A stretch of DNA of 64,000 bases, from contig NZ_JAEULM010000044.1 in NCBI RefSeq assembly GCF_016793825.1, positions 248,001-312,000 on the forward strand, written 5' to 3'. Under the pieces are notes generated by a model, which saw only the letters and a list, made by a program, of their open reading frames with translations, ran no database searches and was not told where the DNA came from. The translations under genes were made by a program, and so were the position numbers. Positions 17,414 through 23,230 of this stretch are shown piece after piece. The stretch's first letter is position 1; each line of letters begins with the position of its first letter. The DNA comes from Sphingopyxis sp. GTDB taxonomy: Bacteria > Pseudomonadota > Alphaproteobacteria > Sphingomonadales > Sphingomonadaceae.

Positions 17414-18601
17414 ATGGAAACCAGAGCCGGCGATCCCGGAGCCTTTGCCCGCTTCGACCTGACCCGCGTCCCCTCGCCCGCGTTCGTCATCGACGCGGCA
17501 AAGGTGCGCGCCAACCTGTCGGTGCTGCGACATATCGGCGATGCTTCGGGCGCACGCGTTCTGGCGGCGCTCAAGGCCTTTTCGATGTGGTCGCTGGGAC
17601 CGACGGTCGCTTCCTATCTCGACGGGGTCTGCGCGTCCGGGCTGTACGAAGCAAGGCTGGGACGCGAGGAATATACAGGGCCCGCCGGCGACCGCGAAGT
17701 CGCCACCTATTGCGCCGGTTACAAGGAGGCCGACCTTCCCGAGATTGCTCGCCTGTCGGACCATCTGATCTTCAATTCGCCCGGCCAGATCGCGCGCTTC
17801 CGGCCGCTACTGGACGACCTGCGCACCCAGGGTGTGCAGTTCGACGTCGGGCTGCGCATCAACCCGATGCACAGCGAAGGAGAGGTGCCGAAGTACGACC
17901 CCGCCGCGCCGTGCAGCCGGCTGGGCTTTCCGATCAGCCAGCTTCTTCCCGAACATATGGAAGGCGTCGATGGCGTGCATATGCACAGCCTGTGCGAACA
18001 GGATTTCCCGCCGCTCGAACGCACCTGGTTGGCGGTGCAACCGATGCTGCGCCCCTTCTTCGCCCAGCTCAAATGGATCAACTTCGGCGGCGGGCACCAT
18101 GTGACCCGCGCGGACTACCAGATCGACGATCTGATCGCGTTTCTGAAGCAGGTGCGGGCCGCGACGAATTGTGACGTGATGATCGAACCGGGCGAAGCGA
18201 TCGCGCTCGACGCCGGCATCCTCGTCGGCGAAGTACTCGACCTCTTCGACAATGGCATGCCGATCGGGATCACCGACATCTCCGCAACCTGCCATATGCC
18301 CGACGTGATCGAAGCGCCCTATCGCCCGGCGATGCTGGACGAAGGCAGCGACGGCATGGTGACGCGCCTCGGCGGTCCGTCGTGCCTCGCCGGCGACGTG
18401 ATCGGCGACTATCGGCTGCCCGGAGGCGCCCGCATCGGCCAGCGCTTCGCCTTCCTCGACCAGGCGCATTATTCGATGGTGAAGACCAATAGCTTCAACG
18501 GCGTGCCGTTGCCGTCCATCTGGCTGTGGGACAGCGAAACCGACGAATTGAGGCTGATCCGCGAATTCGGATATGAAGATTTCAAGACGCGGCTGAGCTA
18601 A
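17414..18601 (+). CDS. nspC: Carboxynorspermidine/carboxyspermidine decarboxylase
   Basis: The product has 395 residues of the alanine-racemase-fold PLP decarboxylases. The PLP lysine is Lys54 in AALKAFSMW; GVHMHSLCEQDFPPLERT and NFGGGHHVTRADYQ are typical of NspC, as is the MIEPGEAIALDAG phosphate-binding turn. It removes the carboxyl group from carboxyspermidine to give spermidine in the cytoplasm. The dehydrogenase that makes its substrate is encoded about 2.7 kb upstream. A long-range stem in the leader may control its translation. Confidence 0.95.
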   Translation: METRAGDPGAFARFDLTRVPSPAFVIDAAKVRANLSVLRHIGDASGARVLAALKAFSMWSLGPTVASYLDGVCASGLYEARLGREEYTGPAGDREVATYCAGYKEADLPEIARLSDHLIFNSPGQIARFRPLLDDLRTQGVQFDVGLRINPMHSEGEVPKYDPAAPCSRLGFPISQLLPEHMEGVDGVHMHSLCEQDFPPLERTWLAVQPMLRPFFAQLKWINFGGGHHVTRADYQIDDLIAFLKQVRAATNCDVMIEPGEAIALDAGILVGEVLDLFDNGMPIGITDISATCHMPDVIEAPYRPAMLDEGSDGMVTRLGGPSCLAGDVIGDYRLPGGARIGQRFAFLDQAHYSMVKTNSFNGVPLPSIWLWDSETDELRLIREFGYEDFKTRLS

Positions 18602-18603
18602 GG

Positions 18604-18642
18604 GCAGGACCCATTTGTCCTGCGCCGACCCCGTCTCGGCGC
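18604..18642 (+). other. Two adjoining hairpins after nspC
   Basis: GCAGGAC (18604-18610) pairs with GTCCTGC (18617-18623) across a six-base loop, and GCGCCGA (18622-18628) pairs with TCGGCGC (18636-18642). The two stems share two bases, so they are partly exclusive. No T-run follows, so this is not a clear intrinsic terminator; it separates nspC from the leader of the decarboxylase gene. Confidence 0.4.
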
Positions 18643-18682
18643 GTCCATCGCATCGCTGTTACAAAATTGCGCTATAGGGTCT

Positions 18683-18790
18683 TTACAGGGGGGACCCCCG
18701 CCCATATATCGCCCTCCGCTGCCCCAGGGGGACTTCCAATAACCGCAAGGCAGCCTTTGTGTTGAACGTTATTTTTGGGGGTCCCTTGAG
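18683..18790 (+). ncRNA. Structured 5' leader of the ornithine-type decarboxylase gene, probably the alphaproteobacterial speF RNA element
   Basis: The 189 bp between nspC and the decarboxylase gene contain a G/C-run structure. GGGACCCCC at 18691-18699 is the exact complement of GGGGGTCCC at 18777-18785, which ends five bases before the TTG start at 18791 and includes the only purine-rich ribosome-binding sequence. CCCCC at 18695-18699 could instead pair with GGGGG at 18727-18731, which would free the start region. A cis-acting RNA named speF is known upstream of ornithine decarboxylase genes in alphaproteobacteria; position and long-range pairing fit, but I have not matched its consensus. 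Confidence 0.6.
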
Positions 18791-19984
18791 TTGCACCAGC
18801 ATCATAGCGCCCACGGGCTGATTCAGGCACTTTCGCCGGTCGAACCTGTTACGCTTGTCCGTCCGCACGCTGCGGCGCGCGCGGCGCGTTTCTTCATCGA
18901 CCGGTTTCCCGGCACGACCATGTATGCGGTCAAGGCGAATCCGTCGCCTGACCTTCTGCGCGTGCTGTGGGATTCGGGCGTCACCCATTACGACGTCGCC
19001 TCGATCGCCGAGGTCCGGCTCGTGGCGCGGACGCTGCCGAAGGCGACGCTCTGCTTCATGCATCCGGTCAAGGCGGAGGAAGCCATTTCCGAAGCCTATT
19101 GGAAACATGGCGTCCGGACCTTCTCGCTCGACACCATGGAGGAGCTCGAAAAGATCGTCCGGGCGACCGAGAGCGCTGCCGATCTCAATCTGCTCGTGCG
19201 CCTGCGCGTTTCTTCGGACCATTCGAAGCTCAGCCTCGCCGCAAAGTTCGGCGCCGAGCCCGAGGAGGTCGCCGAATTGCTGATGGCAACCCGCCAGGCC
19301 GCCGACGCGCTCGGCATCTGCTTCCACGTCGGGAGCCAGGCGATGACGCCCCATGCGTACGCCCAGGCGATGGAACGTGTCCGCACGGCGATCGTCGCGG
19401 CGGCGGTGACCGTCGACATCGTCGATGTCGGCGGCGGCTTTCCCTCGACCTATCCGGGCATGGAACCTCCGCCGCTCGACGCCTATTTTGAAACGATCCA
19501 CCGCAGCTTCGAAAGCCTGCCGATCAGCTATTCGGCTGAACTCTGGTGCGAACCGGGCCGCGCGTTGTCGGCGGAATACAGCTCGCTGATCGTTCGCGTC
19601 GAAAAACGTCGAGGCGACGAGCTGTACATCAACGACGGCGCATACGGCGCGCTGTTCGACGCGGCGCACGTCGGCTGGCGTTTTCCGGTGGCGCTGCTAC
19701 GCGAGCCGCAGAGCGACGCCGAAATGGTGCCGTTCAGCTTCTATGGCCCGACATGCGACGATCTCGACCATATGAATGGCCCGTTCTTTCTGCCTGCGGA
19801 CGTCAAGGCCGGCGATTTCATCGAGATTGGCCTGCTCGGCGCCTATGGCTGCGCGATGCGAACCAAATTCAACGGCTTCGGCGCGGAGGAAATCCACGTC
19901 GTCAGCGACGAGCCGATGGCGAGCCTTTATACCGGAGCCGCCGAACCCGAGCGCCGCAGCGCCACGGTGACCAAGCTCTTCTGA
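18791..19984 (+). CDS. Ornithine (or lysine/ornithine) decarboxylase, alanine-racemase fold
   Basis: The product has 397 residues. The PLP lysine is Lys48 in TMYAVKANPSPDLL; the GGGFPSTYPG turn, EPGRALSAE and the active-site cysteine in FYGPTCDDLDHM are conserved. The enzyme makes putrescine from ornithine, and some members also make cadaverine from lysine. The start is TTG at 18791, the only plausible in-frame start before the conserved region; it sits directly behind the leader stem. An intrinsic terminator follows. With the dehydrogenase and nspC it completes a putrescine-to-spermidine route. Confidence 0.92.
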   Translation: MHQHHSAHGLIQALSPVEPVTLVRPHAAARAARFFIDRFPGTTMYAVKANPSPDLLRVLWDSGVTHYDVASIAEVRLVARTLPKATLCFMHPVKAEEAISEAYWKHGVRTFSLDTMEELEKIVRATESAADLNLLVRLRVSSDHSKLSLAAKFGAEPEEVAELLMATRQAADALGICFHVGSQAMTPHAYAQAMERVRTAIVAAAVTVDIVDVGGGFPSTYPGMEPPPLDAYFETIHRSFESLPISYSAELWCEPGRALSAEYSSLIVRVEKRRGDELYINDGAYGALFDAAHVGWRFPVALLREPQSDAEMVPFSFYGPTCDDLDHMNGPFFLPADVKAGDFIEIGLLGAYGCAMRTKFNGFGAEEIHVVSDEPMASLYTGAAEPERRSATVTKLF

Positions 19985-20128: not shown

Positions 20129-21925
20129 GTGATTGTGCGGATTCCAAAGCTTGTGGGACAGGGCGGCCTGCGCGATATCCTTATCGCAGTGACGATTGTC
20201 GCGCTTGTCGCGCTGTCATGGTCGCTGGTGGCTGGTGGCGGCTCGAACGAACCGGGGCCGTTGCTAAAGCATTATCTCTACATTCTTGCATACAGTTACA
20301 TCATTCTTGTGCTGCCGCCGGTTTCCGCTAGCAGGCGTCTCGCCTCGGCGATTTCTATCGTCGCCGGCCTCGCGCTGGCGGTATTCCTCGCCGCCGACCT
20401 GACGACGATGCGGTTCTTCGATTCGCCGTTTCTTGAGCTCTATCGCTACCTTCCGGTGACCGCCGGCAACGCCTCGATGGCGGCGCTTGCGGGATATGCC
20501 GCGTCCTATGTTCCCGTCACCGTGTGGCTGCTCGCGACCACCGCTGTCTTTGTCGGCATGGGACTCTCGCGGTGTCTCCGCGATCGCGGACGAGCCCGAT
20601 TGACCATTCTCGCACTGTTGCCGCTATTCTATGTCGCGGCCTCGCTGGCGACCGCATCATCGGGCCCATCCGATCCGCGCATTGCCGCGCTGATCGACGA
20701 ACCCCGAGCTCCGCTGCGCCATTTCGGCCGATCGGACCGGTCGGGTCATTTCACCTTGGCCGCCGCCCCGCGCGCCGAACCCAAGACGATCGTTTTCGTC
20801 ATCATGGAGTCCACCGGTGCATCCACGCCCGCCAGCGACGGCAAACGGCTATTGAGCCAGAGCATCGCCGAGGAAAGCGGCGTGGACCGGTGGATCGATT
20901 TCGAAAATGCCGTAACGAACAGCAATGCCACGGACATCAGCGTGCCCTCCCTCCTGACCGGAAGCGGAGCGCATGAGCCCATCGCCAAGATCGAGGCGCT
21001 GCCGTTCGTCTCGCAATATGCGGCGGCTCGCGGATATCGAACCGCCTTCATCACCTCATCGACGATGCAATGGGCAGGGTTCGACGCGTTTTTCGGCGAT
21101 GCGCAGATGGACGACATCATCACCGCGGAATATTCCCGCCTGCCGTTCGTCAACGACCTCGCCGTCGACGACCATTTCGTCTATCGCACCGCTGCCGAGG
21201 CCATCGAAAAAGCGGACGGCAAGCTGTTCCTGACGCTCTATCCGCAAGCGCTGCACTGGCCGTTCCAGACCGACAGCGCCTTCGGCGTGCCTTCTCATAT
21301 CAAGGATCGGCGCGGGCGTGCCGCCTATATCGCCGAGCGCGGCTTCCGGCTGCTCTTCGACAGCCTTCGCAAAGCCGGACGACTGGATGACACGCTGATC
21401 ATCATCGCGGGCGACCACGGCGAATTCGACTATGCATCGACGCTGAAAATGCCGCGTATGCGCATGGATACGTTCGACGAAGGCATACTTTCGCCGATCT
21501 TCCTCATCAAGGCCCCCGCCAGCCTTTCGGCTAGGGATTTCGGGACGCTGACGGACAATTCGGGCAAGCTGGTCGCCAATCTCGACATCGCGCCGACTCT
21601 GGCCGACCTTCTGGGCGGTCAGCTCAAGGAAGGTCTCGCTTACGATGGCCACAGTCTGTTGCGAGACATTCCCGATACCCGCGTCACCTATTCGACATCG
21701 ACGAACGAATGGCGTCACTGGACCAAGGCTGCGATCGCCGTCGCGCGCGGCCGCGACCGGATGACATGCGACAAGACCGATCTTTGCCGTCTCAGCACCG
21801 CCACGGGGTCAAAGCTCACGGCCGGACGTGCCGCGACCCCCGACGACGAATTTTTCCGGCTGGCCTTGAGCAACCCCGTCCTGCGACAGGCGCTGGGGCA
21901 GGTTTACCGGGACTATTACCAATAG
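20129..21925 (+). CDS. Membrane-bound sulfatase/phosphoethanolamine transferase-like protein
   Basis: The product has 598 residues. The N-terminal third has about five membrane helices (DILIAVTIVALVALSWSLVA, HYLYILAYSYIILVLPPV, SAISIVAGLALAVFLAA, VPVTVWLLATTAVFVGMGL and a fifth at ILALLPLFYVAASLA). The C-terminal domain is of the alkaline phosphatase/sulfatase type with IVFVIMESTGAST at the nucleophile site and IIIAGDHGEF for metal binding. Relatives add phosphoethanolamine or phosphoglycerol to envelope glycolipids; the substrate here is unknown. The start is GTG at 20129 or at 20135, the latter better spaced from GAGG. An isolated transcription unit after a terminator. Confidence 0.82.
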   Translation: MIVRIPKLVGQGGLRDILIAVTIVALVALSWSLVAGGGSNEPGPLLKHYLYILAYSYIILVLPPVSASRRLASAISIVAGLALAVFLAADLTTMRFFDSPFLELYRYLPVTAGNASMAALAGYAASYVPVTVWLLATTAVFVGMGLSRCLRDRGRARLTILALLPLFYVAASLATASSGPSDPRIAALIDEPRAPLRHFGRSDRSGHFTLAAAPRAEPKTIVFVIMESTGASTPASDGKRLLSQSIAEESGVDRWIDFENAVTNSNATDISVPSLLTGSGAHEPIAKIEALPFVSQYAAARGYRTAFITSSTMQWAGFDAFFGDAQMDDIITAEYSRLPFVNDLAVDDHFVYRTAAEAIEKADGKLFLTLYPQALHWPFQTDSAFGVPSHIKDRRGRAAYIAERGFRLLFDSLRKAGRLDDTLIIIAGDHGEFDYASTLKMPRMRMDTFDEGILSPIFLIKAPASLSARDFGTLTDNSGKLVANLDIAPTLADLLGGQLKEGLAYDGHSLLRDIPDTRVTYSTSTNEWRHWTKAAIAVARGRDRMTCDKTDLCRLSTATGSKLTAGRAATPDDEFFRLALSNPVLRQALGQVYRDYYQ

Positions 21926-22069: not shown

Positions 22070-23230
22070 ATGACCTTGCTCTCCGGCATCCGGATCATCG
22101 ACCTGACCACGGTCATCTTCGGCCCCTATGCAACGCAGATGCTTGCCGACCTGGGGGCGGAGGTGATCAAGGTCGAAACGCCCGGCATTGGTGACGTTTC
22201 GCGCTATCTCGGCACCGGCAATCCCGACCCGACGATGGGATCGATCCATCTGACCGTCAATCGCGGCAAGCGATCGATCGCGCTCGATCTCAAGAAGCCC
22301 GAGGATGCCGCTATCCTCCGCGAATTGATCGCGACCGGCGACGTCTTCTTCCACAATATCCGTGGCAAGGCGATGGCGCGGCTCGGTTTCGACTATGCAA
22401 GCTGCAAGGCACTGAAGCCCGATATCATCTATGTCCACGGCACCGGCTTCGGCCAGGACGGCCCCTATGCCGACCTGCAGGCCTATGACGATGTGATCCA
22501 GGCCGCGAGCGGGACGACAAGCCTGCTTCCGCGTGCGGACGGGAATCCCCGGCCGCGCTACTTTCCGTCGCTGATCGCCGACAAGGTTGCCGGTCATTTC
22601 GGAGCGCAGGCGATCCTGGCTGCACTCGTTCACAAGCTCCGCACCGGCGAAGGACAAGAGGTCGCCGTGCCGATGTTCGAATGCTTCACGGCCTTCATGC
22701 TGACCGAACATCTGCGCGACGCGACGCTCGACCCCGCGATCGGGCCGGCCGGCTATCCGCGGCAGCTCGATCCGGCACGCCAACCCTTCCCCAGTGCCGA
22801 TGGTTATCTCGCCATCGTCCCCTACACCCCCGAGTCGACCGCGCGCCTGCTGGGCTTGCTTGGCAGCGAAGAGCTGCTGCTTTCCCCCGAGTATGAGGCG
22901 GCCAAGGCCGAAGGCCGGCATATGTCCCTGATATATGCCGAGATCGCGCGTAAGACTCCGGCAAAAACCAGTGCCGAATGGCTCGCAATTTTTGCTGCGA
23001 ACGACATTCCCGCCATGGTCGCGCGCGACCTGGAGGATATCCGGGACGACCCGCACCTGACCGCCACCGGCTTCTTCCGCCGCCGCGAGCATCCTGATGT
23101 CGCTGGATACGTCGAGATGCGCCCCCCGGTAAGATACGGTGCTGCCACAGAAGGCGATCTTGGCTTTGCACCCCGGATCGACGGCGACGGCGCCGCAATC
23201 CGCGCTGAACTGGCTGCCCGGCGCAATTGA
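22070..23230 (+). CDS. Family III CoA-transferase (CaiB/BaiF)
   Basis: The product has 386 residues. The start LSGIRIIDLTTVIFGPYATQ and DLGAEVIKVE are hallmarks of the CaiB/BaiF family, followed by NRGKRSIALDLK and a region SLIADKVAGHFGAQAILAAL that holds the likely catalytic Asp. These enzymes move CoA between acyl groups. The acids involved cannot be read from sequence. The gene stands 144 bp after the sulfatase gene and 64 bp before two MAPEG genes. Confidence 0.9.
   Translation: MTLLSGIRIIDLTTVIFGPYATQMLADLGAEVIKVETPGIGDVSRYLGTGNPDPTMGSIHLTVNRGKRSIALDLKKPEDAAILRELIATGDVFFHNIRGKAMARLGFDYASCKALKPDIIYVHGTGFGQDGPYADLQAYDDVIQAASGTTSLLPRADGNPRPRYFPSLIADKVAGHFGAQAILAALVHKLRTGEGQEVAVPMFECFTAFMLTEHLRDATLDPAIGPAGYPRQLDPARQPFPSADGYLAIVPYTPESTARLLGLLGSEELLLSPEYEAAKAEGRHMSLIYAEIARKTPAKTSAEWLAIFAANDIPAMVARDLEDIRDDPHLTATGFFRRREHPDVAGYVEMRPPVRYGAATEGDLGFAPRIDGDGAAIRAELAARRN

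What the first reader, a model, noticed from the sequence alone, without database searches (positions are those of the whole stretch)
18683..18790. Ornithine decarboxylase leader with two competing pairings over the start region
GGGACCCCC (18691-18699) is the exact complement of GGGGGTCCC (18777-18785), directly before the TTG start. The same CCCCC could pair with GGGGG at 18727-18731, which would open the start. The layout is that of a translational switch, and it stands in front of a polyamine-producing gene in an alphaproteobacterium, where the speF RNA is known. The ligand and mechanism of speF are, to my knowledge, not settled.
Basis: partly seen in the sequence, partly recalled or inferred. 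Interest (0 to 1): 0.7.

Follow-up and report, generated by a model that had tools for sequence, protein, structure and literature searches.

The report
Published odc1 leader controlling ornithine decarboxylase

Summary
Relatives show an H-type pseudoknot (129 of 144 leaders placed). P1 is 18718-18723 x 18749-18754. P2 is 18729-18737 x 18777-18785 and hides the Shine-Dalgarno. It is not speF: no speF hit even at E 10. It matches the published odc1 motif (PMC8632094): two UUG starts two bases apart, the first opening an 11-codon overlapping uORF, the second the ODC gene. The ligand is unknown. The model matches once per genome in 210 of 213 genomes of the window's family and in none sampled from other families. 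My addition: the uORF stop is selected. In 65 distinct leaders where this stop could come only from a rare NTA codon, 64 have NTA and 62 end at codon 11, about 4 expected. The peptide is less constrained. This favours start choice or ribosome occupancy over a sequence-specific arrest peptide. Identity is firm; mechanism and ligand are inferred.

The parts
   Evidence: similar box pair with 16-18 nt spacing in 127 of 141 loci, the -10 test asking only for TA at its start (111 of 127 begin TATA); the consensus scan did not report it; no transcript data
18712..18793 (+). odc1 leader element as modelled here (model R1)
   Evidence: cmsearch 91.5 bits (the window sequence is in the model's training set); one hit in the genome, E 4.6e-23; description matches PMC8632094 section 19
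18718..18723 (+). P1 5' strand GCUGCC (pseudoknot helix)
   Evidence: full 6/6 pairing in 122 of 129 loop-anchored loci of 144; compensatory changes
18724..18728 (+). loop 1 CCAGG (CCAU, CCAA, CCAUG or CCAAG in most relatives; an extra hairpin in some divergent members)
18729..18737 (+). P2 5' strand GGGACUUCC, partner of the Shine-Dalgarno strand
   Evidence: 9/9 pairing in 114 of 129 loop-anchored loci of 144
18738..18748 (+). loop 2 AAUAACCGCAA; the CCGCAA part is strongly conserved
   Evidence: alignments; CCGCAA present in 123 of 135 parsed loci
18749..18754 (+). P1 3' strand GGCAGC
18755..18776 (+). loop 3, variable in sequence and length
   Evidence: 18-39 nt in the distinct cores listed apart from the misplaced L103; much longer in L142, L146 and L148
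18777..18785 (+). P2 3' strand GGGGGUCCC containing the Shine-Dalgarno GGGGG (GGAGG in many relatives)
   Evidence: predicted paired with probability near 1 without the pseudoknot
18786..18821 (+). overlapping uORF, UUG start, 11 codons (read as LSCTSIIAPTG, first residue presumably Met), stop TGA 18819-18821
   Evidence: 11 codons in 139 of 144 loci; stop under selection
18791..19984 (+). ornithine decarboxylase-type PLP enzyme (397 aa, UUG start)
   Evidence: PF02784 and PF00278; best solved relatives are lysine/ornithine decarboxylases, 5gjm E 6.7e-43

Best explanation
This is the Sphingopyxis-type copy of the odc1 leader, a cis-acting RNA that controls translation start on the ornithine decarboxylase mRNA. 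Shown by comparison: an H-type pseudoknot (P1 6 bp, P2 9 bp) whose P2 strand contains the Shine-Dalgarno sequence, followed by two UUG codons two bases apart, the first opening an out-of-frame 11-codon uORF, the second the enzyme. Inferred: when the pseudoknot is stable, ribosome access to the shared Shine-Dalgarno is blocked and little enzyme is made. When it opens, ribosomes must choose between UUG1 and UUG2, and those that take UUG1 translate 11 codons, terminate 28 nt inside the enzyme gene and delay or exclude starts at UUG2. The conserved loop residues (CCA, CCGCAA) are the likely sensing site; the likely signal is a polyamine-pathway metabolite (putrescine, spermidine or a precursor), giving feedback on polyamine synthesis. 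Ligand and direction are not shown.
For: The published description matches in the points readable in its text. P1: 122 of 129 loop-anchored loci fully paired and 209 of 222 pair cells over 37 distinct cores, against at most 97 of 222 when slid by 1-2; P2: 304 of 333 against at most 238 when slid. Compensatory P1 changes: GCAGCC/GGCUGC in L049, L052, L120, L122; GUUGCC/GGCGAC in L149 beside near-identical L141 with GCUGCC/GGCAGC; GCUGCU/AGCAGU in L137. One match per genome in 210 of 213 family genomes. The uORF stop is selected: 62 of 65 against 4.1 expected; NTA codon 64 of 65 against 2% (Leu) and 5% (Val) in the rest of these genes, 2 of 42 at positions 2-9 and 15 of 134 at positions 12-21. 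The uORF start varies among TTG (138), GTG (5) and ATG (1) in 144 loci, as a true start codon would. In the paper both starts were used in lacZ fusions and loop mutants M4-M6 lost main-ORF expression. No terminator-like site was found in 18550-18850, which favours translational control.
Against: No ligand is known. M4-M6 lower main-ORF expression rather than raise it, so the intact loop may promote ODC start instead of only blocking it. P2 is so conserved that only one of its nine pairs (pair 7) shows changes on both sides, so covariation support for P2 is thin; 29 of 333 P2 cells and 13 of 222 P1 cells do not pair, some of them from two misplaced loci. L154 and L155 have lost a recognisable pseudoknot yet keep the gene. 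L110 and L111 have a 9-codon uORF with an intact pseudoknot. The folding energy of the leader is not exceptional.
Confidence: 0.65

Rival explanations
1. The uORF acts as an arrest (leader) peptide: the ribosome stalls on it in response to ornithine or a polyamine and changes ODC translation, with the pseudoknot secondary.
For: Fixed 11-codon length (139 of 144 loci) and selected stop. Sensing leader peptides are known for other polyamine genes (E. coli SpeFL, recalled). Synonymous conservation of codons 2-11 is somewhat raised among the 31 loci compared, 0.63 against a mean of 0.516, rank 16 of 383 overlapping windows.
Against: Peptide residues 5-11 vary widely, e.g. SIIAPTG, NFQTPRL, ISMMRRS. 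After the start only Cys3 (75 of 76) is near-invariant; its codon is the UG of UUG2 plus the first base of the next main codon. Sequence-specific arrest usually needs conserved residues near the end (recalled).
Confidence: 0.2
2. The pseudoknot has no small-molecule ligand; it is a static attenuator, a protein-binding site or a temperature- or ion-sensitive fold that sets a low, balanced ODC level.
For: No ligand reported in the odc1 section of the paper. Polyamines and ions stabilise pseudoknots generally (recalled), so feedback could be non-specific.
Against: Strongly conserved unpaired loop residues (CCGCAA in 123 of 135 parsed loci) are more than a simple attenuator needs.
Confidence: 0.25
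3. One reading: a speF-type switch in which 18691-18699 alternates between 18777-18785 and 18727-18731.
For: Exact complementarity in the window and in 22 of 49 Sphingopyxis-like loci; the minimum-energy fold of 18683-18800 contains it.
Against: 0 of 30 other loci keep it 9/9; the arm sits in the inferred promoter spacer; pairing probability 0.00 when 18683-18830 is folded; no speF hit in the window or its genome.
Confidence: 0.02

Closest known systems
odc1 motif (uORF-25-1), PMC8632094, RNA Biol 2021
   Same: Same gene, same class of bacteria, stem with the RBS in its 3' shoulder, pseudoknot from the 5' end into the loop, two UUG codons two bases apart, 11-residue uORF; a CoA transferase of PF02515, a family in the paper's gene list, also lies downstream here at 22070-23230.
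   Different: Nothing tested here differs.
speF leader, Rfam RF00518, PMC1273637
   Same: Also an orphan leader before an ODC gene in alphaproteobacteria; its authors report no measurable binding of ornithine, lysine, diaminopimelate, putrescine, cadaverine or spermidine.
   Different: No model match in either direction. Found in 11 of 289 class genomes (9 over cut-off), none in this family, of which that sample held only 4; over cut-off in 0 of 199 family genomes, with 2 weak matches. Three ODC proteins behind speF were compared and are 29-31% identical to the window's.
SAM-II and preQ1 type H-pseudoknot translational riboswitches
   Same: Works like them in outline: compact pseudoknot that buries the Shine-Dalgarno (resemblance recalled).
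   Different: No Rfam family reaches its gathering score in the window; the two-start uORF arrangement is not part of those classes as far as I recall.
Spermidine riboswitch (SAM-I variant), PMC10853860
   Same: RNA control of polyamine genes.
   Different: Built on a SAM-I fold; no Rfam hit at gathering score here.

Membership tests
odc1 motif | stem whose 3' shoulder contains the RBS | tested here: met
   P2 18729-18737 x 18777-18785, 9/9 pairs; 9/9 in 114 of 129 loop-anchored loci
odc1 motif | pseudoknot between the 5' end and the loop | tested here: met
   P1 18718-18723 x 18749-18754; 122 of 129 loop-anchored loci fully paired
odc1 motif | two UUG codons separated by two nucleotides | tested here: met
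   TTG 18786 and TTG 18791
odc1 motif | 11-residue uORF peptide | tested here: met
   LSCTSIIAPTG then TGA (for L095, the same place in the window's own genome)
odc1 motif | upstream of an ornithine decarboxylase gene in alphaproteobacteria | tested here: met
   PF02784 and PF00278; nearest solved relatives are lysine/ornithine decarboxylases; relatives are Sphingopyxis and kin
odc1 motif | both starts are translated | not testable with these tools
   shown for S. echinoides in the paper, not for this locus
odc1 motif | match to the published alignment or figure | not tested
   figures and supplements were not available
speF leader RF00518 | covariance model score at or above the gathering threshold | tested here: not met
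   none at gathering in the window, no speF match at E up to 10 in 18400-18950
metabolite-binding riboswitch | selective ligand binding that changes expression | not testable with these tools
   no ligand known; needs binding and reporter assays

The most novel reading that the evidence does not exclude
odc1 is a length-gated two-start switch: what evolution keeps is not so much the uORF peptide as the place where its ribosome stops. With the stop codon in the A site at 18819 the P site is at 18816, 30 nt from UUG1 and 25 nt from UUG2. Against a ribosome footprint near 28-30 nt (recalled), a slowly terminating ribosome would just permit a new start at UUG1 but shut UUG2. A polyamine-sensitive termination rate or pseudoknot could then set ODC output by ribosome occupancy alone. 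The alternative with the same signature is termination followed by back-stepping and re-initiation at UUG2. The 9-codon uORFs of L110 and L111 would shorten both distances by 6 nt and are a point against a strict gate.
Probability: 0.3. Interest if true: 0.7.

Novelty: new member of a known kind. Interest (0 to 1): 0.42.

Why it matters
odc1 is an unsolved riboswitch candidate in front of the committing enzyme of polyamine synthesis, where few polyamine riboswitches are accepted. Showing that the uORF stop, more than the peptide, is under strong selection makes a clear test possible: move the stop by single codons and ask whether ODC start changes. It also separates two orphan leaders (odc1 and speF) that sit before distantly related ODC genes in different alphaproteobacterial families, so their ligands can be sought independently.

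Tried and rejected
Rejected: speF membership. Weak sub-cut-off speF matches in two family genomes (L163, L164) were followed for one of them, L163: it lies antisense inside a thiamine-diphosphate-type enzyme gene (name by my reading of the ORF), so probably chance. L164 was not examined further.

Rejected: the 18691 arm as a conserved RNA arm. Its near-palindrome GGGGGGACCCCC might be an operator, but it occurs once in the genome and is largely a feature of Sphingopyxis-like promoters (listing), so I left it.

Considered and dropped: competition between the conserved CCCC (18722-18725) and the GGG of P2. Hairpins of this kind exist in some divergent members, but by eye in L127, L128, L138 and L156/L157 they can coexist with P2, so competition is not a family trait.

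Considered: conserved synteny with nspC. It is upstream in the window, but a same-strand match within 1.6 kb upstream was found in only 52 of 144 loci, some of them with short flanks.

Weak spots of the counts: one search chose arms partly by best pairing and misparsed at least L020, L066 and L072, so I rely, which anchors on loop letters only. One search misplaced L103 and L128, left 15 of 144 loci unanchored (mostly divergent or degenerate ones), and its 129 loci hold many near-identical Sphingopyxis. One search's parse is wrong for L142, L144, L146, L148 and L152 and shifted or uncertain for L139, L150, L153, L154 and L155. The 144 loci count the window twice (window and L095) and contain near-duplicates; L047 (cut) and L078 (no motif, ATG start, 15-codon frame) were left out. 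One search's first estimate used 80 loci with duplicates; one search used distinct sequences. One search stopped with an error after printing the counts used here; one search finished the background counts. One of the 65 (L155) could not make the stop at all with its next residue. One search failed on a missing file and was redone. One search read minus-strand loci unturned and was redone. The whole-genome searches (over 40 genomes each) used stricter filters that lose some weak matches.

Full report
WHAT IS THERE. The gene behind them is an ornithine decarboxylase-type enzyme starting at TTG 18791. A search of one genome per species found 84 relatives and kept 80, nearly all Sphingomonadales by their record titles. 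Their leaders, apart from L078 and the cut L047, share a conserved core.

THE REAL FOLD. The conserved core is CCGCUGCCCCA-N-GGGGACUUCC...ACCGCAAGGCAGC...GGRGGUCCCUUGAGUUG. It forms an H-type pseudoknot: P1 18718-18723 x 18749-18754 and P2 18729-18737 x 18777-18785. Anchoring each leader on loop letters alone, without using pairing, 129 of 144 leaders could be placed; 122 of these pair fully in P1 and 114 in P2. Over 37 distinct cores, 209 of 222 P1 cells and 304 of 333 P2 cells pair; sliding one arm by 1-2 bases gives at most 97 and 238. P1 shows compensatory changes, clearest in L149 against its near twin L141. P2 is almost invariant, so its covariation support is weaker: only pair 7 changes on both sides. 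Single-sequence folding energy is ordinary, and the nested prediction pairs the Shine-Dalgarno with probability near 1 (that program cannot form the pseudoknot, so it gives P1 zero).

The 18691-18699 arm lies between -35-like and -10-like boxes that recur at 16-18 nt spacing in 127 of 141 loci; the -10 test asked only for TA at the start, and 111 of the 127 begin TATA. The promoter is inferred from conservation; the consensus scan did not report it and there are no transcript data.

WHAT IT IS. No Rfam family reaches its gathering score in the window; at E up to 10, 18400-18950 gives two chance-level matches to other families and none to speF. A literature search led to PMC8632094, whose section on the odc1 motif I read in full: 272 alphaproteobacterial examples, before ODC genes, stem with the RBS in its right shoulder, pseudoknot from the 5' end, two UUG codons two bases apart, an 11-residue uORF. 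In their lacZ fusions of the S. echinoides leader both starts worked, the uORF about three times more than the main one; [quoted passage not shown] No ligand is given. The features that can be tested from the text are met here, except the reporter result, which needs the bench. A search for the motif's names found four papers in the library, of which only this one concerns the motif.

DISTRIBUTION. A model built from 36 leaders finds one match per genome in 210 of 296 genomes of the order; all 210 are among the 213 genomes of the window's family (the family total follows from the listing). Of the three without a match, two have the ODC gene with a divergent but recognisable leader and one (G407) gave no ODC match at E 1e-60. 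In the class sample only 4 of 289 match, all in this family. speF matches 11 of the same 289, none of the 4 family members among them, and 0 of 199 family genomes reach its cut-off, two having weak matches. The odc1 model finds nothing in the 11 speF loci at E up to 1. Three speF-linked ODC proteins compared are 29-31% identical to the window's.

THE uORF. Its length is 11 codons in 139 of 144 loci; the others are L110 and L111 (9), L155 (22), L074 and L144 (48). L155, and L074 with its look-alike L144, also have degenerate pseudoknots (L074: P1 5 of 6, P2 5 of 9), whereas L154 is degenerate but keeps 11 codons. Among 79 distinct sequences of the overlap, 65 could make the stop only with an NTA codon at main codon 10; 62 of 65 have exactly 11 codons where 4.1 are expected from each gene's own codon use, and the codon is NTA in 64 of 65, against 46 of 2169 Leu and 103 of 2003 Val codons from codon 15 on, 2 of 42 Leu/Val codons at positions 2-9 and 15 of 134 at positions 12-21. 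In the other 14 sequences 14 are 11 codons with 8.4 expected. The uORF start codon is TTG in 138, GTG in 5 and ATG in 1 of 144 loci. By contrast the peptide is loosely kept: after the start only Cys3 is near-invariant (75 of 76), and that follows largely from the main frame. Synonymous conservation over codons 2-11 is only moderately raised, rank 16 of 383 overlapping windows among 31 loci. Loci share ancestry, so these counts are not independent events, but three stop codons and several amino-acid contexts serve the same end.

MECHANISM. Shown: structure by comparison, two starts, selected stop. Inferred: P2 blocks the Shine-Dalgarno; the open form offers two starts; uORF translation competes with ODC translation. 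The fixed stop place, 28 nt inside the gene, suggests that where the uORF ribosome ends matters, by occupancy or by re-initiation. Ligand and sign of control are open; M4-M6 in the paper warn that the loop may favour ODC start.

LITERATURE SEEN. PMC8632094: section 19 in full and passages. PMC1273637: passages on speF. PMC10853860: three passages, one of them from the abstract. PMC11109978, PMC6429828, PMC2864571 and PMC4239095: term searches only. Other papers: search listings only. Remarks on SpeFL, SAM-II, preQ1 and ribosome footprints are recalled.

VERDICT. The finding points at a real and interesting element, already in print as odc1, with the wrong fold and the wrong family name. What is added here is the family-wide census, the separation from speF, the promoter argument and the evidence that the uORF stop is selected. 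The paper already stated that the peptide length does not vary; the codon evidence for selection on the stop I did not see in the section read.

Noticed in passing
window 18688-18699: Near-palindrome GGGGGGACCCCC in the promoter spacer; once in the genome, seen in many Sphingopyxis-like promoters and few others (listing); possibly an operator.
   Followed up: partly
window 17414-18601: Carboxynorspermidine decarboxylase-like gene (TIGR01047, 375 bits, below the curated cut-off of 409) directly upstream; a same-strand match lies within 1.6 kb upstream in 52 of 144 loci.
   Followed up: partly
L060, L075, L127, L128, L138, L139, L150, L153, L156, L157: Divergent leaders appear (by eye) to carry an extra C-rich/G-rich hairpin in loop 1 with differing stems; it sometimes overlaps the P2 strand.
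   Followed up: partly
L137: Both starts are ATG instead of TTG, with the same two-base spacing and an 11-codon uORF.
   Followed up: no
G407 (genome handle): Of 213 family genomes the only one with neither an odc1 model match nor, in the follow-up of the three misses, an ODC match at E 1e-60.
   Followed up: no
L142, L146, L148: These leaders have a loop 3 far longer than usual between P1 and the Shine-Dalgarno strand; their three genomes carry the same genus label, g238.
   Followed up: no
window 20129-21925: Sulfatase-family protein (PF00884) downstream, followed by a CoA transferase (PF02515) at 22070, a family named in the odc1 paper's gene list.
   Followed up: no
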